Origin: Chitinophaga sp. SYP-B3965
GTDB taxonomy: Bacteria > Bacteroidota > Bacteroidia > Chitinophagales > Chitinophagaceae
Reading direction: 5' to 3'
Assembly (NCBI RefSeq): GCF_009647655.1
Contig: NZ_WJFD01000001.1
Location: forward strand, 124,001 to 188,000
DNA: 64,000 bases
The position numbers and the translations under genes are program-made. Shown in pieces: positions 54,097 to 59,517 of the stretch. The notes beneath the pieces were generated by a model. The model ran no database searches, had not been told where the DNA came from, and was given only the letters and a program-made list of their open reading frames with translations. The stretch's first letter is position 1. Each line of letters begins with the position of its first letter.

Positions 54097-54780
54097 TCAA
54101 CAGATCAGCAACAACCTGTTCTGTCCGGATCTTTCCTTTGGTGCACGGTGAATACAGGGAGGAACCTGGCTTTCAGGATGATCAACCGCCAATCTCCATA
54201 AGTGACCAGTGCCTAAGCTTATTGGATGTGCATCAGGTGTAGCCTGATAATGCAGATCAAAGAAATGTTCACTTAAGAATGATTCAAAACCTTCATCTGC
54301 TCCATCATATAGTTTTTTTAGTTCATCACGTATTGCCGGAATAAGCACTTTCTTTTGGCCCTGTGAATTTGGCAATATGTCACTCGGCTCGCCATAGTAA
54401 GTGCATAAAAAGGTATCGGTTGGTACAGGAGAGCGATCTACATGAAAGGAATAAACATCGGTTGGAAGAAAAGGGAAGGCATCATCCCGGTCATAGTAGT
54501 TGATCACATTAAGGGTTGGCGATGCGCCATGCGCTTTCAATGCCTTCAGATCATTTAAAAGAACTTCACGGGCAAGTTGCCCTTGTTCACTTAACTGCAG
54601 TTCATGGAGTTCTTCTTCTTCAATTGCCGTTATATTTCCGCTTAGTGTTACCTTTTTAACAATCTCAGAAAAATCACCTGTTAGTTGACGCGTCCAGCAA
54701 ATCGCATTCATTTCTCCACTAAATGGTGTAGAAACAAGGTCTTGAAAACTCGTGACACAGTGAATTTGATGATCTATCAT
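54097..54780 (-). CDS. DUF1826-type protein of unknown function
   Basis: A 227-residue protein. The start is set at the ATG at 54780; the frame stays open further up only because it reads through the tRNA-Leu gene, where the MAKLVDAL segment is a translated tRNA. Motifs of the DUF1826 family can be seen: YSFHVDRSPVPTDTFLCTY, GEPSDILPN and, at the end, IHRAPKERSGQNRLLLIC. Members of this family have histidines and cysteines that could bind metal, but function is unknown. The start lies only 11 bases after the tRNA terminator, so transcription needs read-through or a promoter inside that hairpin region. Confidence 0.6.
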   Translation of the reverse strand: MIDHQIHCVTSFQDLVSTPFSGEMNAICWTRQLTGDFSEIVKKVTLSGNITAIEEEELHELQLSEQGQLAREVLLNDLKALKAHGASPTLNVINYYDRDDAFPFLPTDVYSFHVDRSPVPTDTFLCTYYGEPSDILPNSQGQKKVLIPAIRDELKKLYDGADEGFESFLSEHFFDLHYQATPDAHPISLGTGHLWRLAVDHPESQVPPCIHRAPKERSGQNRLLLIC

Positions 54781-54791
54781 GATAGTTAATA

Positions 54792-54830
54792 TAAATAAAA
54801 GATCCGCTACAAGAGCGGATCTTTTATTTA
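54792..54830 (-). terminator. Terminator directly after tRNA-Leu
   Basis: A perfect 17-bp stem (54792-54808 with 54814-54830) and a five-base loop begin one base after the encoded CCA. Read on the minus strand the stem ends in GATCTTTTATTTA, a T-rich tail. Confidence 0.85.
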
Positions 54831-54831
54831 T

Positions 54832-54918
54832 TGGTGCCCAGAACTGGATTCGAACCAGCACATCCTTGCGGACGCTGCGACCTGAACACAGTGCGTCTAC
54901 CAATTTCGCCATCTGGGC
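54832..54918 (-). tRNA. tRNA-Leu (anticodon CAG)
   Basis: Read on the minus strand the 87 bases fold as a class II tRNA. The acceptor stem GCCCAGA/TCTGGGC is perfect, and the D arm carries TTGGTAGACGC. The anticodon stem CTGTG/CGCAG holds TT-CAG-GT (anticodon at 54884-54882). A long variable arm (GTCCGCAAGGAT) and the T arm GCTGG-TTCGAAT-CCAGT follow. CCA is encoded. The long variable arm and CAG anticodon identify leucine. It lies between dapD and the DUF1826 gene on the same strand. Confidence 0.97.
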
Positions 54919-55800: not shown

Positions 55801-55818
55801 TGTCTAATAATATTTCCG

Positions 55819-55826
55819 CAAAAATA
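55819..55826 (-). promoter_or_regulatory. -7 box for dapD
   Basis: Read on the minus strand, TATTTTTG matches the Bacteroidota consensus TAnnTTTG exactly. It lies in the 30-base gap between the second ATP-grasp gene and dapD; no clear -33 TTG is visible. Confidence 0.55.
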
Positions 55827-55830
55827 GTAA

Positions 55831-56814
55831 TCATTCTCTTCTTTCCGCCTGGTTTAATAATACGGCGGCCAGATGGCGGGAAATAGCGTTGTTGCATTGC
55901 TTGTCCAGCCAGAAATATTCGCCGGCTGCGTTCACTTCCAGGAAATAGCATTTTCCTTCCGGTGTGAGGATCAGGTCTATGGCTCCGTAGTTCAGGCCGT
56001 AGGTGTCCATGAAGGTTAAGAGGGCAAGGCTGATATTTGAAGGCAATGTATACGCCTGCCATGCATCTGCCAGGGCGGCCCCTTCCTTTCGCCAGTCCAC
56101 CAGCTGTTTGGAATCTATGGAAAAACAGAAGATCTCACGGCCAACGATGGTTACCCGGAGTTCGAGGGCTTTTTCCAGTTTTTCCTGGAACACCATCGGG
56201 CAATACCGCAGTTCGTTCAGCTGATCCAGGTGGGCGGTGGTTACTTCGTTCGTAAATACCACATGTTCCTGCCCATCCCGGTAAATGGCAAAGGCGCTCT
56301 GCATTTTAGCGATCACGGGTTTGCCGGTATTTTCGAGGAAAGCTTTCAGTTGTGCGGGGGAATTGGTGATGCAGGTGGCGGGTACTTCCAGGCCGCAATC
56401 TTTTGCGATGCGCAATTGTTCTTCTTTACTATCCAGGCGGCGGTATACACTGTATTTTTCTATCTGGAAACATTTCAGACCTTCCAGCATTCCGAACAGC
56501 GTGCGCCGCAGTTCACCGAGGGTGGAAGAGAGGTATTCCTTTTCCAGCAGGGTTTCCAGCCCTTTGCCGATGTGGTAACTGCGGCGGTACCATACAGCGG
56601 TGATATCATCTAGACTGGATGTGGTTTGGGGTGTTTCCAGTAGTCCCTGCCATTGTCCGTTGATGAAAGAGGAACTAAGCCTGCTCTCTACAGGGTAGCG
56701 GTCTACGTCAAAACGCACACAGCTTCCGCCAAGGTGTTCGATCTGCTGTATGACGGTATCTACTACGTTATTGTCTTCGGAATGGGTGATAATGAGGACT
56801 TTACCTTTATTCAT
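55831..56814 (-). CDS. Graspetide maturase, MvdD/MdnC-like ATP-grasp ligase
   Basis: A 327-residue ATP-grasp enzyme of the microviridin/graspetide type. The N-terminal domain starts VLIITHSEDNNVVDTVIQQI and carries AVWYRR. The ATP-grasp core includes KPVIAKMQSAFAIY, CPMVFQEKLEKALELRVTIV and the metal-binding LNYGAIDLILTPEGKCYFLE followed by VNAAGEYFWLD. Such ligases form ester or amide links between Thr/Ser/Lys and Asp/Glu side chains of a ribosomal peptide. It overlaps the first ligase by eight bases and lies in one operon with the small precursor gene at 57840-58010. Which ring it closes is not certain; MvdD-like enzymes make the esters. Confidence 0.88.
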   Translation of the reverse strand: MNKGKVLIITHSEDNNVVDTVIQQIEHLGGSCVRFDVDRYPVESRLSSSFINGQWQGLLETPQTTSSLDDITAVWYRRSYHIGKGLETLLEKEYLSSTLGELRRTLFGMLEGLKCFQIEKYSVYRRLDSKEEQLRIAKDCGLEVPATCITNSPAQLKAFLENTGKPVIAKMQSAFAIYRDGQEHVVFTNEVTTAHLDQLNELRYCPMVFQEKLEKALELRVTIVGREIFCFSIDSKQLVDWRKEGAALADAWQAYTLPSNISLALLTFMDTYGLNYGAIDLILTPEGKCYFLEVNAAGEYFWLDKQCNNAISRHLAAVLLNQAERRE

Positions 56815-57769
56815 TGGTGATCCGGTTAACTAATTTCTCGGCAATGGTTTCGGCGATGGGGAAGCCGAGGTATTTTTCGAGCATGCCCCATTCTCCCTGG
56901 GGATTCACTTCCAGGAAAACGTATTTGCCATCCGGCTGCACGATCATGTCTATCGCGCCAAAAGGCAGGTTCAGCAGGCGCATCATGGCATCTATCTTTT
57001 CTGCTGTATCTGCGGGTAACTGGTAAGGTTCCCATTGAATGATGGTGGTGCTATTGGTGCGCCAGTCCGTGGATTCGGGAGCTTTCAGGCTGCCGGTAAA
57101 GATCTCTCCGTCTATATAGGCGATGCGCAGTTCCCGGTCCTTGGGAATATATTCCTGCAGGATCATGGGGCAGGCGGCCAGGGATTCCAGCATGGGCACG
57201 TCTTCTTTGCGCAGGCGGGTGGTGGGGAAGAAGTCGCCGGCGCCATCCATGGTTTTGGAGAGTGCGCCATGCAGTTTCACCACTACGTCGCCATTGTTGG
57301 CGTCATAAAATTTGATGGCATCTTCCGCATGATTGCTGATAATGGTTTGCGGAACATACAGGCCGGCAGCCTGTGCGGCAGCCAGCTGTATGAGTTTATT
57401 ATTGCCAATGCCATGGTCTATGTGCATGGGATTGATCCAGGGCACATCCAGTGCATCGAGGAAGATATGCAGGGAGGTATTGTATTCTTTGATGAAGGCA
57501 GGAACATAAGCCGGGTCCAGGGACGGCGGCACCTGTAGTTTCCAGAGCTTTCTGTACCATACGGCACTCACATCACTGGCGTTCAGCGTTTGCTTCCCGT
57601 GTTGCAGCTGGTATTGCGGACCGTTCTCTGTGAGCCGGTACCGGAGCCGGTAACGCGTGCCGAATTCATCAGAGTTGAAACGGAAACTCGGGTATCCAAG
57701 CTGTTGCAGGCGTTGTTGTACTAACTCTATTGTGTAGGTGTCCTGTGAATGAGTGATGCAAAGAATCAT
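56807..57769 (-). CDS. Graspetide maturase, MvdC/MdnB-like ATP-grasp ligase
   Basis: A 320-residue ATP-grasp ligase, paralogue of the next gene. The ATG at 57769 (MILCITHSQDTYTIELVQQR) is chosen; codons further up cover the hairpin and the precursor gene in another frame and give no sensible protein. Features are AVWYRKLWKL, INPMHIDHGIGNNKLIQLAA, VVVKLHGALSKTM, CPMILQEYIPKDRELRIAYI and LPFGAIDMIVQPDGKYVFLE with VNPQGEWGMLE. In microviridin pathways one ligase makes the two esters and the other the amide. Order and similarity suggest this is the MvdC-like one, but that is tentative. The precursor gene ends 70 bases upstream. Confidence 0.88.
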   Translation of the reverse strand: MILCITHSQDTYTIELVQQRLQQLGYPSFRFNSDEFGTRYRLRYRLTENGPQYQLQHGKQTLNASDVSAVWYRKLWKLQVPPSLDPAYVPAFIKEYNTSLHIFLDALDVPWINPMHIDHGIGNNKLIQLAAAQAAGLYVPQTIISNHAEDAIKFYDANNGDVVVKLHGALSKTMDGAGDFFPTTRLRKEDVPMLESLAACPMILQEYIPKDRELRIAYIDGEIFTGSLKAPESTDWRTNSTTIIQWEPYQLPADTAEKIDAMMRLLNLPFGAIDMIVQPDGKYVFLEVNPQGEWGMLEKYLGFPIAETIAEKLVNRITNE

Positions 57770-57782
57770 GAAGCATGGAAAT

Positions 57783-57814
57783 AAAAAACAAGCAATAGCG
57801 TGTGCCATTGCTTG
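57783..57814 (-). terminator. Hairpin with U-tract between graspetide precursor and ligases
   Basis: CAAGCAATAGC (57789-57799) pairs with GCCATTGCTTG (57804-57814) with one mismatch and a GTGT loop. On the minus strand the stem is followed by TTTTTTAT (57788-57781). It looks like a partial terminator that would give more precursor than ligase message. Confidence 0.75.
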
Positions 57815-57839
57815 CAATGATCGTAGAATGTTTGATGAA

Positions 57840-58010
57840 CTATAACAGCCACCATTCCTCATCCCCATCTGAAGGGTATTTGAGGGTCTGGTCGGGAGCA
57901 TCTGATAATTTGCTCGTCCAGCTGCTTTGTTTTCCCTGGTTCTTTTCAGTTTGCTGTGCTTCCAGGAATTGTGCAAAGAATGGCTTCATTACTTGTTCAT
58001 TGGGCTTCAT
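57840..58010 (-). CDS. Microviridin-type graspetide precursor peptide
   Basis: A 56-residue peptide. The leader has KPFFAQFLEAQ at residues 9-19, which matches the PFFARFLE recognition helix of microviridin leaders. The C-terminal core starts near KLSDAPDQ and contains TLKYPSDGDEEWWLL (42-56). The TxKYPSD block is the microviridin signature; Thr42, Lys44 and Ser47 are the expected donors and Asp48, Asp50, Glu51 and Glu52 the possible acceptors. Compared with microviridin B, the Trp after PSD is Gly and one extra acidic residue is present. The two ATP-grasp ligases follow on the same strand. No double-glycine leader motif is seen, and no dedicated protease, acetyltransferase or transporter lies nearby. 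Microviridins typically inhibit serine proteases, which is an inference here. Confidence 0.93.
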   Translation of the reverse strand: MKPNEQVMKPFFAQFLEAQQTEKNQGKQSSWTSKLSDAPDQTLKYPSDGDEEWWLL

Positions 58011-58395
58011 ACTTGATTGTTTTTTGTTGATGATACAAGATGATACGATAACTAATGGATATGTTTAATGGGAGTAAATGTCTTGATTAAGCTGATTTTC
58101 CAATCTGATATGCTTCATAAAAAGCGGACAATCAAATTAATCTTTTTTGAGGAATTAAACAAATCTAATTACCTGATCTGGTGGCGGTTAATAGAGTATC
58201 ATGGGAAGCTATATACTGACACTATATTACCCATTCTGCCTGACCCAACGTCAACCCTTGGTGAACCCTTAGAGAACCGAACAAGAACCCTTAGAGAGAA
58301 ATGTTTAAATACAGTCATTACTGCATTAAACTGATAGCTTTTTAACTGATCACATTAATTTACTATTTTGCCCCCTGAATTAAATGTAACGCAAC
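58011..58395. other. Divergent intergenic region between graspetide cluster and glycosyltransferase
   Basis: The 385 bases contain the promoter zone of the precursor (minus) and of the glycosyltransferase (plus), and the 11-bp-spaced repeat array at 58242-58297. An 88-codon frame (58068-58334) crosses it but has no recognisable motif and reads through the repeats out of register, so I do not call it a gene. Near 58362-58371 there is TACTATTTTG, a loose -7 box for the glycosyltransferase. Confidence 0.6.
58242..58297 (+). repeat. Tandem 11-bp-spaced AACCCTT-like iterons
   Basis: Units begin at 58242 (GACCCAA), 58253 (AACCCTT), 58264 (AACCCTT), 58275 (AACCGAA) and 58286 (AACCCTT), each exactly 11 bases from the next. 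The longer copy GAACCCTTAGAGA occurs twice (58263-58275 and 58285-58297), 22 bases apart. The spacing equals one helical turn, so all units face the same side of the DNA, as expected of binding sites for an oligomerising regulator. Confidence 0.8.
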
Positions 58396-59517
58396 TTGAA
58401 TATTGGTTTCGATGCTAAGCGGGCTTTTCAAAACCGTACGGGACTGGGCAATTACAGCCGGACGCTGATACGGTCCCTTGGGGAGTACTATCCGCAAAAT
58501 AACTATTTTCTTTTTGCCCCCAAAGAAAAACCGCTGTTCCAGCTGCCAGCCGGTATGCAAACCATCCTGCCGCAAAAGGCGCATCACAGGTGGTTAAAGT
58601 CCGTATGGAGAAGCCGCTGGGTGATCAATGACCTGGTTAGTAATGAGATTGACCTGTATCATGGCCTGAGCGCAGAACTGCCATTTGGGATCACCAACAG
58701 CGGTGTGCAGAGTGTAGTGACCATACATGACCTGATCTTTGAACGTTACCCTGAACAATACAATCCCATTGATGTGTACACCTATCGCAAAAAGGCCCAA
58801 TACGCCTGTAAACATGCGGATAAGGTGATTGCCATCAGCGAACAGACCAAACGGGACCTCATTGAATATTATCATACACCGGAGAACCGCATCAAGGTGT
58901 GTTATCAGAGCTGCGATCCCTCTTTCGAAAAACAATGTACAAAAGAGGAGATTAACAGCATGCTGGCTGCGTATCAGCTTCCATCGTCTTACTTCCTCTA
59001 TGTAGGTTCTGTGATAGAACGGAAAAACCTGTTAGGTATCGCAAAAGCCATGCGCCTGCTGAAAGGGAAGCTGGACATACCCCTGGTGGTATTGGGCGAT
59101 GGGGATAAATATAAGGATGAGGTAAAGGCCTTCCTGCAAAAAGAAGGAATGGCCGCACAACTCATCTGGCTAAACGAAGTAGCGAAATTCTCCTTTAAAG
59201 ACCTTCCTGCCTTATACCAGGGTGCCCTAGCGCTGGTATACCCCTCTATTTTTGAGGGTTTTGGCATTCCCATCCTGGAAGCACTCTGGAGCCGCACACC
59301 GGTGATCACTTCCGATGTATCCTGTTTCCAGGAAACAGCAGGAGATGCGGCCCTATATATTAATCCTTATCTGCCGGCCACAATAGCAGAGGCCATGGAA
59401 AGGCTGGCGATTGATCGTACCTTTGCAGCTGGTATGCAGGAAAAGGGCCTGCAGCACGCACAACAATTCACCCTGGATAAATGTGCCGCCGCTGTTATGC
59501 AGGTGTACCAGTCTTAA
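58396..59517 (+). CDS. Glycosyltransferase of the GT4 (group 1) type
   Basis: A 373-residue GT-B glycosyltransferase. The start is TTG at 58396 (an upstream ATG is followed at once by a stop). The N-terminus MNIGFDAKRAFQNRTGLGNY is typical of family-1 transferases, the acceptor domain includes LYHGLSAELPFG, and the donor domain has YVGSVIERKNLLGIAKAMRL and the EX7E-type segment YPSIFEGFGIPILEALWSRT. Its acceptor is unknown. The Sua5-like gene starts 16 bases downstream, so the two are likely cotranscribed. Confidence 0.9.
   Translation: MNIGFDAKRAFQNRTGLGNYSRTLIRSLGEYYPQNNYFLFAPKEKPLFQLPAGMQTILPQKAHHRWLKSVWRSRWVINDLVSNEIDLYHGLSAELPFGITNSGVQSVVTIHDLIFERYPEQYNPIDVYTYRKKAQYACKHADKVIAISEQTKRDLIEYYHTPENRIKVCYQSCDPSFEKQCTKEEINSMLAAYQLPSSYFLYVGSVIERKNLLGIAKAMRLLKGKLDIPLVVLGDGDKYKDEVKAFLQKEGMAAQLIWLNEVAKFSFKDLPALYQGALALVYPSIFEGFGIPILEALWSRTPVITSDVSCFQETAGDAALYINPYLPATIAEAMERLAIDRTFAAGMQEKGLQHAQQFTLDKCAAAVMQVYQS

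What the first reader, a model, noticed from the sequence alone, without database searches (positions are those of the whole stretch)
55831..58010. Compact microviridin-type graspetide cluster in a Chitinophaga-like genome
A 56-codon gene (57840-58010, minus) carries a PFFAQFLE leader and a TLKYPSD core, and two overlapping ATP-grasp ligases follow it. This is seen directly. It makes a minimal precursor-ligase-ligase cluster without a dedicated acetyltransferase, protease or transporter. A tricyclic serine-protease inhibitor is the expected product by analogy with microviridins. Such short genes are easily missed by annotation.
Basis: partly seen in the sequence, partly recalled or inferred. 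Interest (0 to 1): 0.88.

Follow-up and report, generated by a model that had tools for sequence, protein, structure and literature searches.

The report
Two-core graspetide cluster in Chitinophaga
A soil bacterium carries a compact three-gene recipe for a ring-locked peptide, probably a protease blocker with four rings rather than three; it belongs to a family that is already known, but one group of related species has kept it almost unchanged.

Summary
In detail: a 56-codon precursor (57840-58010, minus) is followed by two ATP-grasp ligases overlapping by 8 bp. Profiles place it in the microviridin/marinostatin family; the ligases are MvdC-like (amide) and MvdD-like (ester). No dedicated acetyltransferase, peptidase or exporter gene was found beside it.

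Two corrections. First, it is nearer the Bacteroidota chryseoviridin type than cyanobacterial microviridin: the ester ligase is closest to CdnC, and a conserved mini-core, T32-SKLS-D37, precedes TLKYPSDGDE. Four cross-links are predicted (three esters, one amide; minus 72 Da), not three. Second, it is not a lone cluster: 17 of 79 genomes of the genus, this one included, carry this type beside the same glycosyltransferase gene; in a tree of 16 carriers and 16 non-carriers the carriers form one group, and 15 of those 16 non-carriers show the empty site.

In 16 carriers the 15-residue core is invariant except the P1 residue (Leu/His/Gln), despite near-saturated silent change. A maintained serine-protease inhibitor fits best.

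Leader removal, export and target are unknown; there is no double-glycine site. Closest characterised: chryseoviridin, microviridin B, and chitinoviridins of Chitinophaga japonensis (paper not readable here). New member of a known kind.

The parts
57840..58010 (-). precursor peptide gene, 56 aa
   Evidence: NF033738 53.3 bits over cut-off 26, PF12559 over cut-off
57954..57983 (-). leader recognition motif PFFAQFLEAQ (residues 10-19)
   Evidence: P10, F11, F12, A13, L16, E17 invariant among 24 aligned precursors; PFFARFL is described as the ligase-activating motif in PMC8939145
57900..57917 (-). mini-core T32-S-K-L-S-D37, predicted single ester ring T32-D37
   Evidence: TxxxxD 0-6 residues before the last core in 41 of 50 distinct Chitinophagaceae precursors, 2.9 expected by shuffling; published chryseoviridin motif TxxxxDxxxTxKxPSDxD[DE]
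57843..57887 (-). main core T42-LKYPSDGDEEWWLL, predicted esters T42-D48 and S47-D50, amide K44-E51; Leu43 = P1
   Evidence: linkage scheme by homology to microviridin
56807..57769 (-). MvdC/MdnB/CdnB-like ATP-grasp ligase (predicted amide former), 320 aa
   Evidence: TIGR04185 355.8 bits, PF21068; best PDB match AMdnB 7m4s
55831..56814 (-). MvdD/MdnC/CdnC-like ATP-grasp ligase (predicted ester former), 327 aa
   Evidence: TIGR04184 401.8 bits, PF21068; best PDB match CdnC 7mgv 356 bits
54988..55800 (-). tetrahydrodipicolinate N-succinyltransferase (DapD) gene, 30 nt downstream; flanking marker, not part of the pathway
   Evidence: Pfam THDPS_N_2 and hexapeptide repeats over cut-off
58396..59517 (+). 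divergent glycosyltransferase gene; upstream flanking marker
   Evidence: Pfam Glycos_transf_1 over cut-off
58011..58178 (-). upstream stretch conserved in the two nearest congeners, with TAGATTTG (like the Bacteroidetes -7 box, recalled) at about -157; possible promoter and long 5' UTR
   Evidence: three-sequence alignment; no Rfam match here

Best explanation
The three genes make a two-core, chryseoviridin-type graspetide. The leader helix (PFFAQFLE) docks on the ligases. The CdnC/MvdD-like ligase forms three side-chain esters: T32-D37 in the mini-core, and T42-D48 and S47-D50 in the main core. The MvdC/CdnB-like ligase then forms the amide K44-E51. The main core is a rigid substrate-like loop that blocks a serine protease, with Leu43 as P1 (elastase-, subtilisin- or chymotrypsin-like target). 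The leader is cut, if at all, by a peptidase encoded elsewhere, probably in the variable spacer before W31. The gene set entered one site, beside a glycosyltransferase gene, in the ancestor of one Chitinophaga group and has been kept since. Shown: genes, homology, motif conservation, synteny, selection pattern. Inferred: rings, order of steps, inhibition, cleavage site. Unknown: export and natural target.
For: Profile hits for all three genes. Ester ligase nearest to CdnC among PDB sequences, 356 bits against 250 for 5ig9; the title of the CdnC paper calls it a dual-function ligase for single and bicyclic esters (reference entry only). Mini-core: among 50 distinct Chitinophagaceae precursors held, TxxxxD lies 0-6 residues before the last core in 41 (2.9 expected from shuffled spacers) and [TS]x4[DE] in 45 (8.2 expected). 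Niastella-type rows keep the hydroxyl/carboxyl chemistry while changing letters (SIPIFD, SLPIMD, SLPIIE). The strict form is in 58 of 58 Chryseobacterium but 0 of 6 cyanobacterial and 0 of 11 myxobacterial/deltaproteobacterial precursors. K34, D40 and E52 are not kept outside this type, so no fifth ring is needed. In 16 carriers the core has pN/pS 0.034 with pS 0.75; its only amino-acid change is at P1, Leu/His/Gln. P1 role and Leu-elastase link: PMC7823629 passages. Carriers on one side of one branch, 100/96; empty site in 15 of 16 non-carriers fetched.
Against: No mass or activity data. Both ligases score below NCBI's equivalog cut-offs. Relatives are not independent, so the counts show distribution, not probability. 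The ester-ligase fork joining the Chitinophaga and Chryseobacterium sides is weak (91/54), and CdnC itself is not in that tree. In two of 17 carriers, G038 and G064, the ester ligase frame is short (263 and 266 aligned residues), and G064's precursor start is broken; other genes in those stretches are broken too, so this may be sequence error or decay.
Confidence: 0.72

Rival explanations
1. Plain tricyclic microviridin: only the TLKYPSDGDE core is cyclised; the TSKLSD block is conserved for another reason, such as ligase docking or leader cleavage.
For: The core matches microviridin; modified microviridin B precursor with three rings inhibits elastase. A few relatives lack the mini-core yet keep the core.
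Against: The block matches the published chryseoviridin motif, whose marked residues correspond to experimentally determined linkages according to the figure legend, and its Thr/Ser-Asp/Glu pair is kept while the residues between vary.
Confidence: 0.2
2. The peptide is never exported or cut: the cyclised precursor acts inside the cell, leader attached, on one of the producer's own serine proteases.
For: No peptidase or dedicated exporter among the neighbouring genes checked (10 in the window, 20 from 11 carrier loci); no double-glycine site; modified microviridin B precursor inhibits elastase with its leader on (PMC11672978 passages); strong purifying selection on the product.
Against: Other graspetide clusters also lack a local peptidase and use one encoded elsewhere (NosP). 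The genome has C39 and M1 peptidase matches elsewhere. One carrier, G026, has a MacB-like permease gene beyond dapD, and some others have TonB/SusD genes downstream. The variable spacer next to a conserved block looks like a cleavage zone.
Confidence: 0.15
3. Decayed or silent remnant cluster.
For: G064 (65% complete) has a broken precursor frame and G038 and G064 have shortened ester ligase frames.
Against: The precursor is intact in the other 16 carriers with pN/pS 0.03-0.10; in those two genomes other genes nearby are broken too.
Confidence: 0.02

Closest known systems
Chryseoviridin (CdnA/CdnB/CdnC, Chryseobacterium)
   Same: TxxxxD mini-core before TxKxPSDxD[DE]; two ligases; CdnC is the nearest PDB sequence to the ester ligase
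   Different: Here one precursor with one mini-core and no double-glycine motif; the Chryseobacterium precursors examined are longer, carry GG, often have several mini-cores, and often sit as several genes per locus
Microviridin B/J (MdnA/MdnB/MdnC, cyanobacteria)
   Same: PFF leader motif and TxKYPSD core (microviridin core letters recalled); amide plus ester ligases
   Different: Extra mini-core; Asp rather than Glu as second acidic partner (microviridin side recalled); no acetyltransferase gene for the product found nearby; ester ligase apart from the cyanobacterial rows
Chitinoviridins A1/A2A, Chitinophaga japonensis DSM 13484 (Wang et al. 2022, not held; cited in PMC13039773)
   Same: Same genus, same three kinds of gene (L070)
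   Different: Different chromosomal site; cores TLKFPSDWDD and TQKFPSDGDEEWDI. That paper may already describe an extra ring.

Membership tests
Microviridin/marinostatin-type graspetide precursor | Match to curated precursor profile | tested here: met
   NF033738 53.3 bits, cut-off 26; PF12559 28.3, cut-off 21
Microviridin/marinostatin-type graspetide precursor | PFFxxFL leader and TxKxPSD core with two following acidic residues | tested here: met
   PFFAQFLE and TLKYPSDGDE; D50 and E51
MvdC and MvdD equivalogs (TIGR04185, TIGR04184) | Score over NCBI's equivalog cut-off | tested here: not met
   355.8 against 425; 401.8 against 475. Each prefers its own model over the other by more than 120 bits. 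They are relatives, not formal equivalogs.
ATP-grasp graspetide ligase | MvdD pre-ATP-grasp domain plus ATP-grasp fold | tested here: met
   PF21068 in both over cut-off; near full-length matches to solved ligases 7mgv, 5ig9, 5ig8, 7m4s. Pfam RimK ATP-grasp over cut-off only for ligase 1; no structure was predicted
Chryseoviridin | TxxxxDxxxTxKxPSDxD[DE] motif | tested here: met
   T32-SKLS-D37-APDQ-T42-LKYPSD-G-D50-E51; the spacer is four residues, not three
Chryseoviridin | GG motif between leader and core | tested here: not met
   None in the window precursor; so it is filed as chryseoviridin-like, not as a chryseoviridin
Chryseoviridin | Esters in mini-core and bicyclic main core | not testable with these tools
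   needs mass spectrometry
Serine protease inhibitor | Inhibition assay | not testable with these tools
   inferred from P1 pattern

The most novel reading that the evidence does not exclude
A graspetide kept by a whole bacterial clade that needs neither leader peptidase nor exporter: a four-ring precursor that works inside the producer, leader attached, as a house-keeping inhibitor of its own serine protease, with the P1 residue tracking that protease between species.
Probability: 0.12. Interest if true: 0.62.

Novelty: new member of a known kind. Interest (0 to 1): 0.33.

Why it matters
It gives a compact natural system (one short precursor, two ligases) in which the number of rings can be settled by one mass measurement, and a natural series of orthologues whose cores differ only at the residue that sets protease specificity. 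It also marks a clade where leader removal, if it happens, must work without the usual double-glycine signal.

Tried and rejected
Fifth cross-link using K34 or E52: rejected, because neither is kept in related precursors. C39 exporter in the neighbourhood: 8 of 89 sources scanned had one, none of them Chitinophaga; a single C39 query was used, so distant ones could be missed. Other neighbours: Pfam on 10 window ORFs and on 20 ORFs from 11 carrier loci found no leader peptidase, GNAT acetyltransferase or C39 exporter; it found a MacB-like permease beyond dapD in G026. Neighbours of the other carriers were judged only by similarity to window ORFs. NosP-like leader cleavage: the genome has eight M1-family matches, too many to single one out; the LEEQ/LAEQ motif described in PMC13039773 is not present, and the nearest string, LEAQ, lies inside the leader motif, so I did not use it. 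Second cluster in the same genome: none found. RNA element upstream: no Rfam match. My GG test also flags GG or AG inside the spacer or mini-core (C. japonensis, C. alhagiae, one G034 precursor, one Niastella precursor); those flags were judged by eye and not taken as leader sites. One search counted 38 precursors and left out the multi-core genus g2 and Taibaiella of the same family; one search recounts with all 50 held, and its figures are used. In one search one carrier was dropped (G064, broken frame) and G036 is represented by C. pinensis isolate 3 (same protein). In one search only 16 of the 62 genomes without this cluster type were fetched. No structure prediction was run. Literature: searches showed no held paper on this cluster in their listings; the held library omits most subscription journals, so this is not proof that it is unpublished.

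Full report
What is there. On the minus strand, a 56-aa precursor (57840-58010) is followed after 70 nt by a 320-aa ATP-grasp ligase (56807-57769) and, overlapping it by 8 bp, a 327-aa ATP-grasp ligase (55831-56814). The precursor passes the curated NCBIfam and Pfam cut-offs for microviridin/marinostatin inhibitors. The first ligase prefers the MvdC model, the second the MvdD model; both fall short of NCBI's equivalog cut-offs but match end to end. By sequence the nearest solved structures are AMdnB (7m4s, 239 bits) for the first and CdnC (7mgv, 356 bits) for the second; the next for the second is 5ig9 at 250 bits. The own genome (7.14 Mb, 15 contigs) gave no other such ligase or precursor.

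Host and spread. In the window's genus, 21 of 79 genomes have a precursor match over cut-off. Contigs that agree in length and position with named records show that the genus is Chitinophaga. Reading the precursors, 17 of the 21, the window's genome included, have the type WTSKL[AS]D[AV]PDQTxKYPSDGDEEWWLL, and four have other types. In a family-level draw 10 of 294 genomes match at E 0.01, nine of them over the cut-off; the 10 include the window's genome and one congener. A scan of genome contigs with the precursor alignment found 168 relatives, of which the 80 best were kept, mostly Bacteroidota with some proteobacteria, myxobacteria, planctomycetes, acidobacteria and cyanobacteria.

Mini-core. 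Aligning 24 Chitinophaga precursors shows T32 and D37 nearly invariant, in addition to the known core residues. The block TSKLSD is the TxxxxD unit that PMC8939145 gives as part of the chryseoviridin motif TxxxxDxxxTxKxPSDxD[DE]; its legend says the marked residues correspond to experimentally determined linkages (passages read). Among all 50 distinct Chitinophagaceae precursors held, the strict unit lies 0-6 residues before the last core in 41, against 2.9 expected from shuffled spacers, and a Ser/Glu-tolerant form in 45, against 8.2. An earlier count on 38 of them, without the multi-core genus g2 and Taibaiella and measured 0-5 residues before the first core, gave 31 and 35, against 1.4 and 5.5. 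The five that fail the tolerant form are one each from Chitinophaga sp. GbtcB8, C. japonensis and G300, and two from genus g2 (L054, L055). By group, among precursors of the loci and the window, the strict unit is in 58 of 58 from Chryseobacterium, 26 of 29 Chitinophaga, 8 of 8 Taibaiella, 7 of 7 Flavobacterium, 4 of 4 Colwellia, 3 of 3 betaproteobacterial, 2 of 2 Terrimonas, 1 of 2 Niastella, 1 of 6 planctomycete, and in 0 of 11 myxobacterial/deltaproteobacterial, 0 of 6 cyanobacterial, 0 of 5 acidobacterial, and 0 of 2 each from Olivibacter, Microscilla, Bacteroidales, Crocinitomix and a Bacteroidetes MAG. Related sequences are not independent, so these counts describe distribution rather than give probabilities. 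In an 84-row tree of ester ligases the window lies in a 15-row clade of this type (100/100), next to other Chitinophaga and Niastella (92/79), then the side that holds Flavobacterium, Chryseobacterium, Taibaiella and Terrimonas (91/54, weak), and apart from the cyanobacterial rows; several long branches make deep forks unsure.

Predicted chemistry. Esters T32-D37, T42-D48 and S47-D50 by the CdnC-like ligase, amide K44-E51 by the MvdC-like ligase: loss of four waters, 6559.14 to 6487.10 Da. Ring assignment is by homology and has not been shown.

Selection. For 16 carriers (G064 dropped, G036 represented by C. pinensis isolate 3), pN/pS is 0.097 for the leader, 0.044 for the 26-codon block and 0.034 for the core, with pS between 0.72 and 0.75. 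Only three of 26 positions change amino acid: A/S, A/V, and the residue after T42, which is Leu, His or Gln. That residue is position 5 of microviridins, which lies in the S1 pocket of trypsin in the microviridin J complex and governs specificity; Leu and Val variants inhibit subtilisin and elastase (PMC7823629 passages). On the ligase tree the three residues need at least three changes (read by eye).

Site and history. The divergent glycosyltransferase gene lies next to the precursor in all 17 carriers, though in G064 only a 143-residue match remains; the amide ligase is full length in all 17, the ester ligase in 15 (short in G038 and G064, where other genes nearby are broken too) (and the window). 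DapD follows the ester ligase in 8 of the 17, the window included, and was not found within the fetched flank of the other 9. There the neighbours include sulfatases (C. cymbidii, G056) and SusD/TonB-type genes (Pfam on C. rhizosphaerae and C. deserti; the others by similarity to window ORFs). Of 16 genomes without this cluster type that were fetched, out of 62, 15 have the glycosyltransferase and DapD as direct divergent neighbours; in G044 other genes lie between (for C. japonensis a masked gene was placed). In a tree of the glycosyltransferase with 16 carriers and 16 non-carriers, carriers are one side of one branch (100/96). The simplest history is one insertion beside the glycosyltransferase gene followed by retention. 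The clusters of C. japonensis, C. rupis, GbtcB8 and G034 lie elsewhere.

Leader removal and export. The window precursor has no double-glycine site, and no C39 transporter gene was found in the flanks of the Chitinophaga loci scanned. Pfam on 10 window neighbours and 20 neighbours from 11 carrier loci shows housekeeping and variable genes (DapD, Sua5, tRNA nucleotidyltransferase, sulfatases, integrases, a type I restriction system, SusD/TonB) and, in G026, a MacB-like permease beyond dapD. The genome has three C39 and eight M1-family matches elsewhere. PMC13039773 (parts 1, 2 and 4 of 5 and passages read) reports that an M1 peptidase encoded in trans cuts a class I microviridin leader, and describes class III precursors, mostly of Bacteroidetes, as having GG sites; the present type fits neither class neatly. 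PMC11672978 (passages) shows that modified microviridin B precursor inhibits elastase with its leader attached, which keeps an uncut, intracellular role possible.

Known or new. Microviridin-like clusters in Bacteroidota, and in Chitinophaga japonensis in particular, are already in print. I could not read Wang et al. 2022 or Zhao et al. 2021. I therefore file this as a new member of a known kind, with a compact single-precursor, GG-less architecture and a P1-only pattern of core variation that I did not find described in the listings of the held library or in the passages read.

Noticed in passing
window 58243-58297: Three degenerate 22-nt direct repeats between the glycosyltransferase gene and the precursor; not examined in relatives.
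   Followed up: partly
window 58011-58178 (minus): About 170 nt upstream of the precursor are strongly conserved in the two nearest congeners, with TAGATTTG near -157; suggests a promoter and a long 5' UTR. The TAGATTTG string was absent from the ten more distant carriers searched.
   Followed up: partly
window 54832-54918 (minus): tRNA-Leu (CAG) overlaps the start of the ORF listed at 54097-54912 (DUF1826), so that ORF's true start is further in.
   Followed up: yes
L141, L142, L143, L062 downstream of dapD: What follows dapD varies between close species: phage-type integrases in G028 and G025, a type I restriction system in C. alhagiae, a MacB-like permease in G026; in the window a tRNA-Leu lies there, so this may be an integration hot spot.
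   Followed up: partly
window 55801-55830: Only 30 nt separate the second ligase from dapD; the insertion may have placed a lysine-pathway gene under the cluster's transcription.
   Followed up: no
L148 (G034): One congener has five distinct precursors before its two ligases, with differing cores and P1 residues (Q, M, D, H, L).
   Followed up: partly
L062, L063, L143: C. alhagiae, C. barathri and G025 carry a second precursor just upstream, ending ...T[LT]KYPSDGDEV with its own mini-core TLKI[WF]D.
   Followed up: partly
L145 (G038): Several genes in this stretch, including the ester ligase, read as shortened or split frames in a genome rated 99% complete; sequence error or decay not resolved.
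   Followed up: no
L149, L151 (G000 contig C9, about 15-21 kb): Two of the genome's three C39 peptidase matches lie within 6 kb of each other, suggesting another, unrelated peptide-export locus.
   Followed up: no
L074-L076, L086, L114: Betaproteobacterial and Colwellia precursors also carry the TxxxxD mini-core before the last core.
   Followed up: partly
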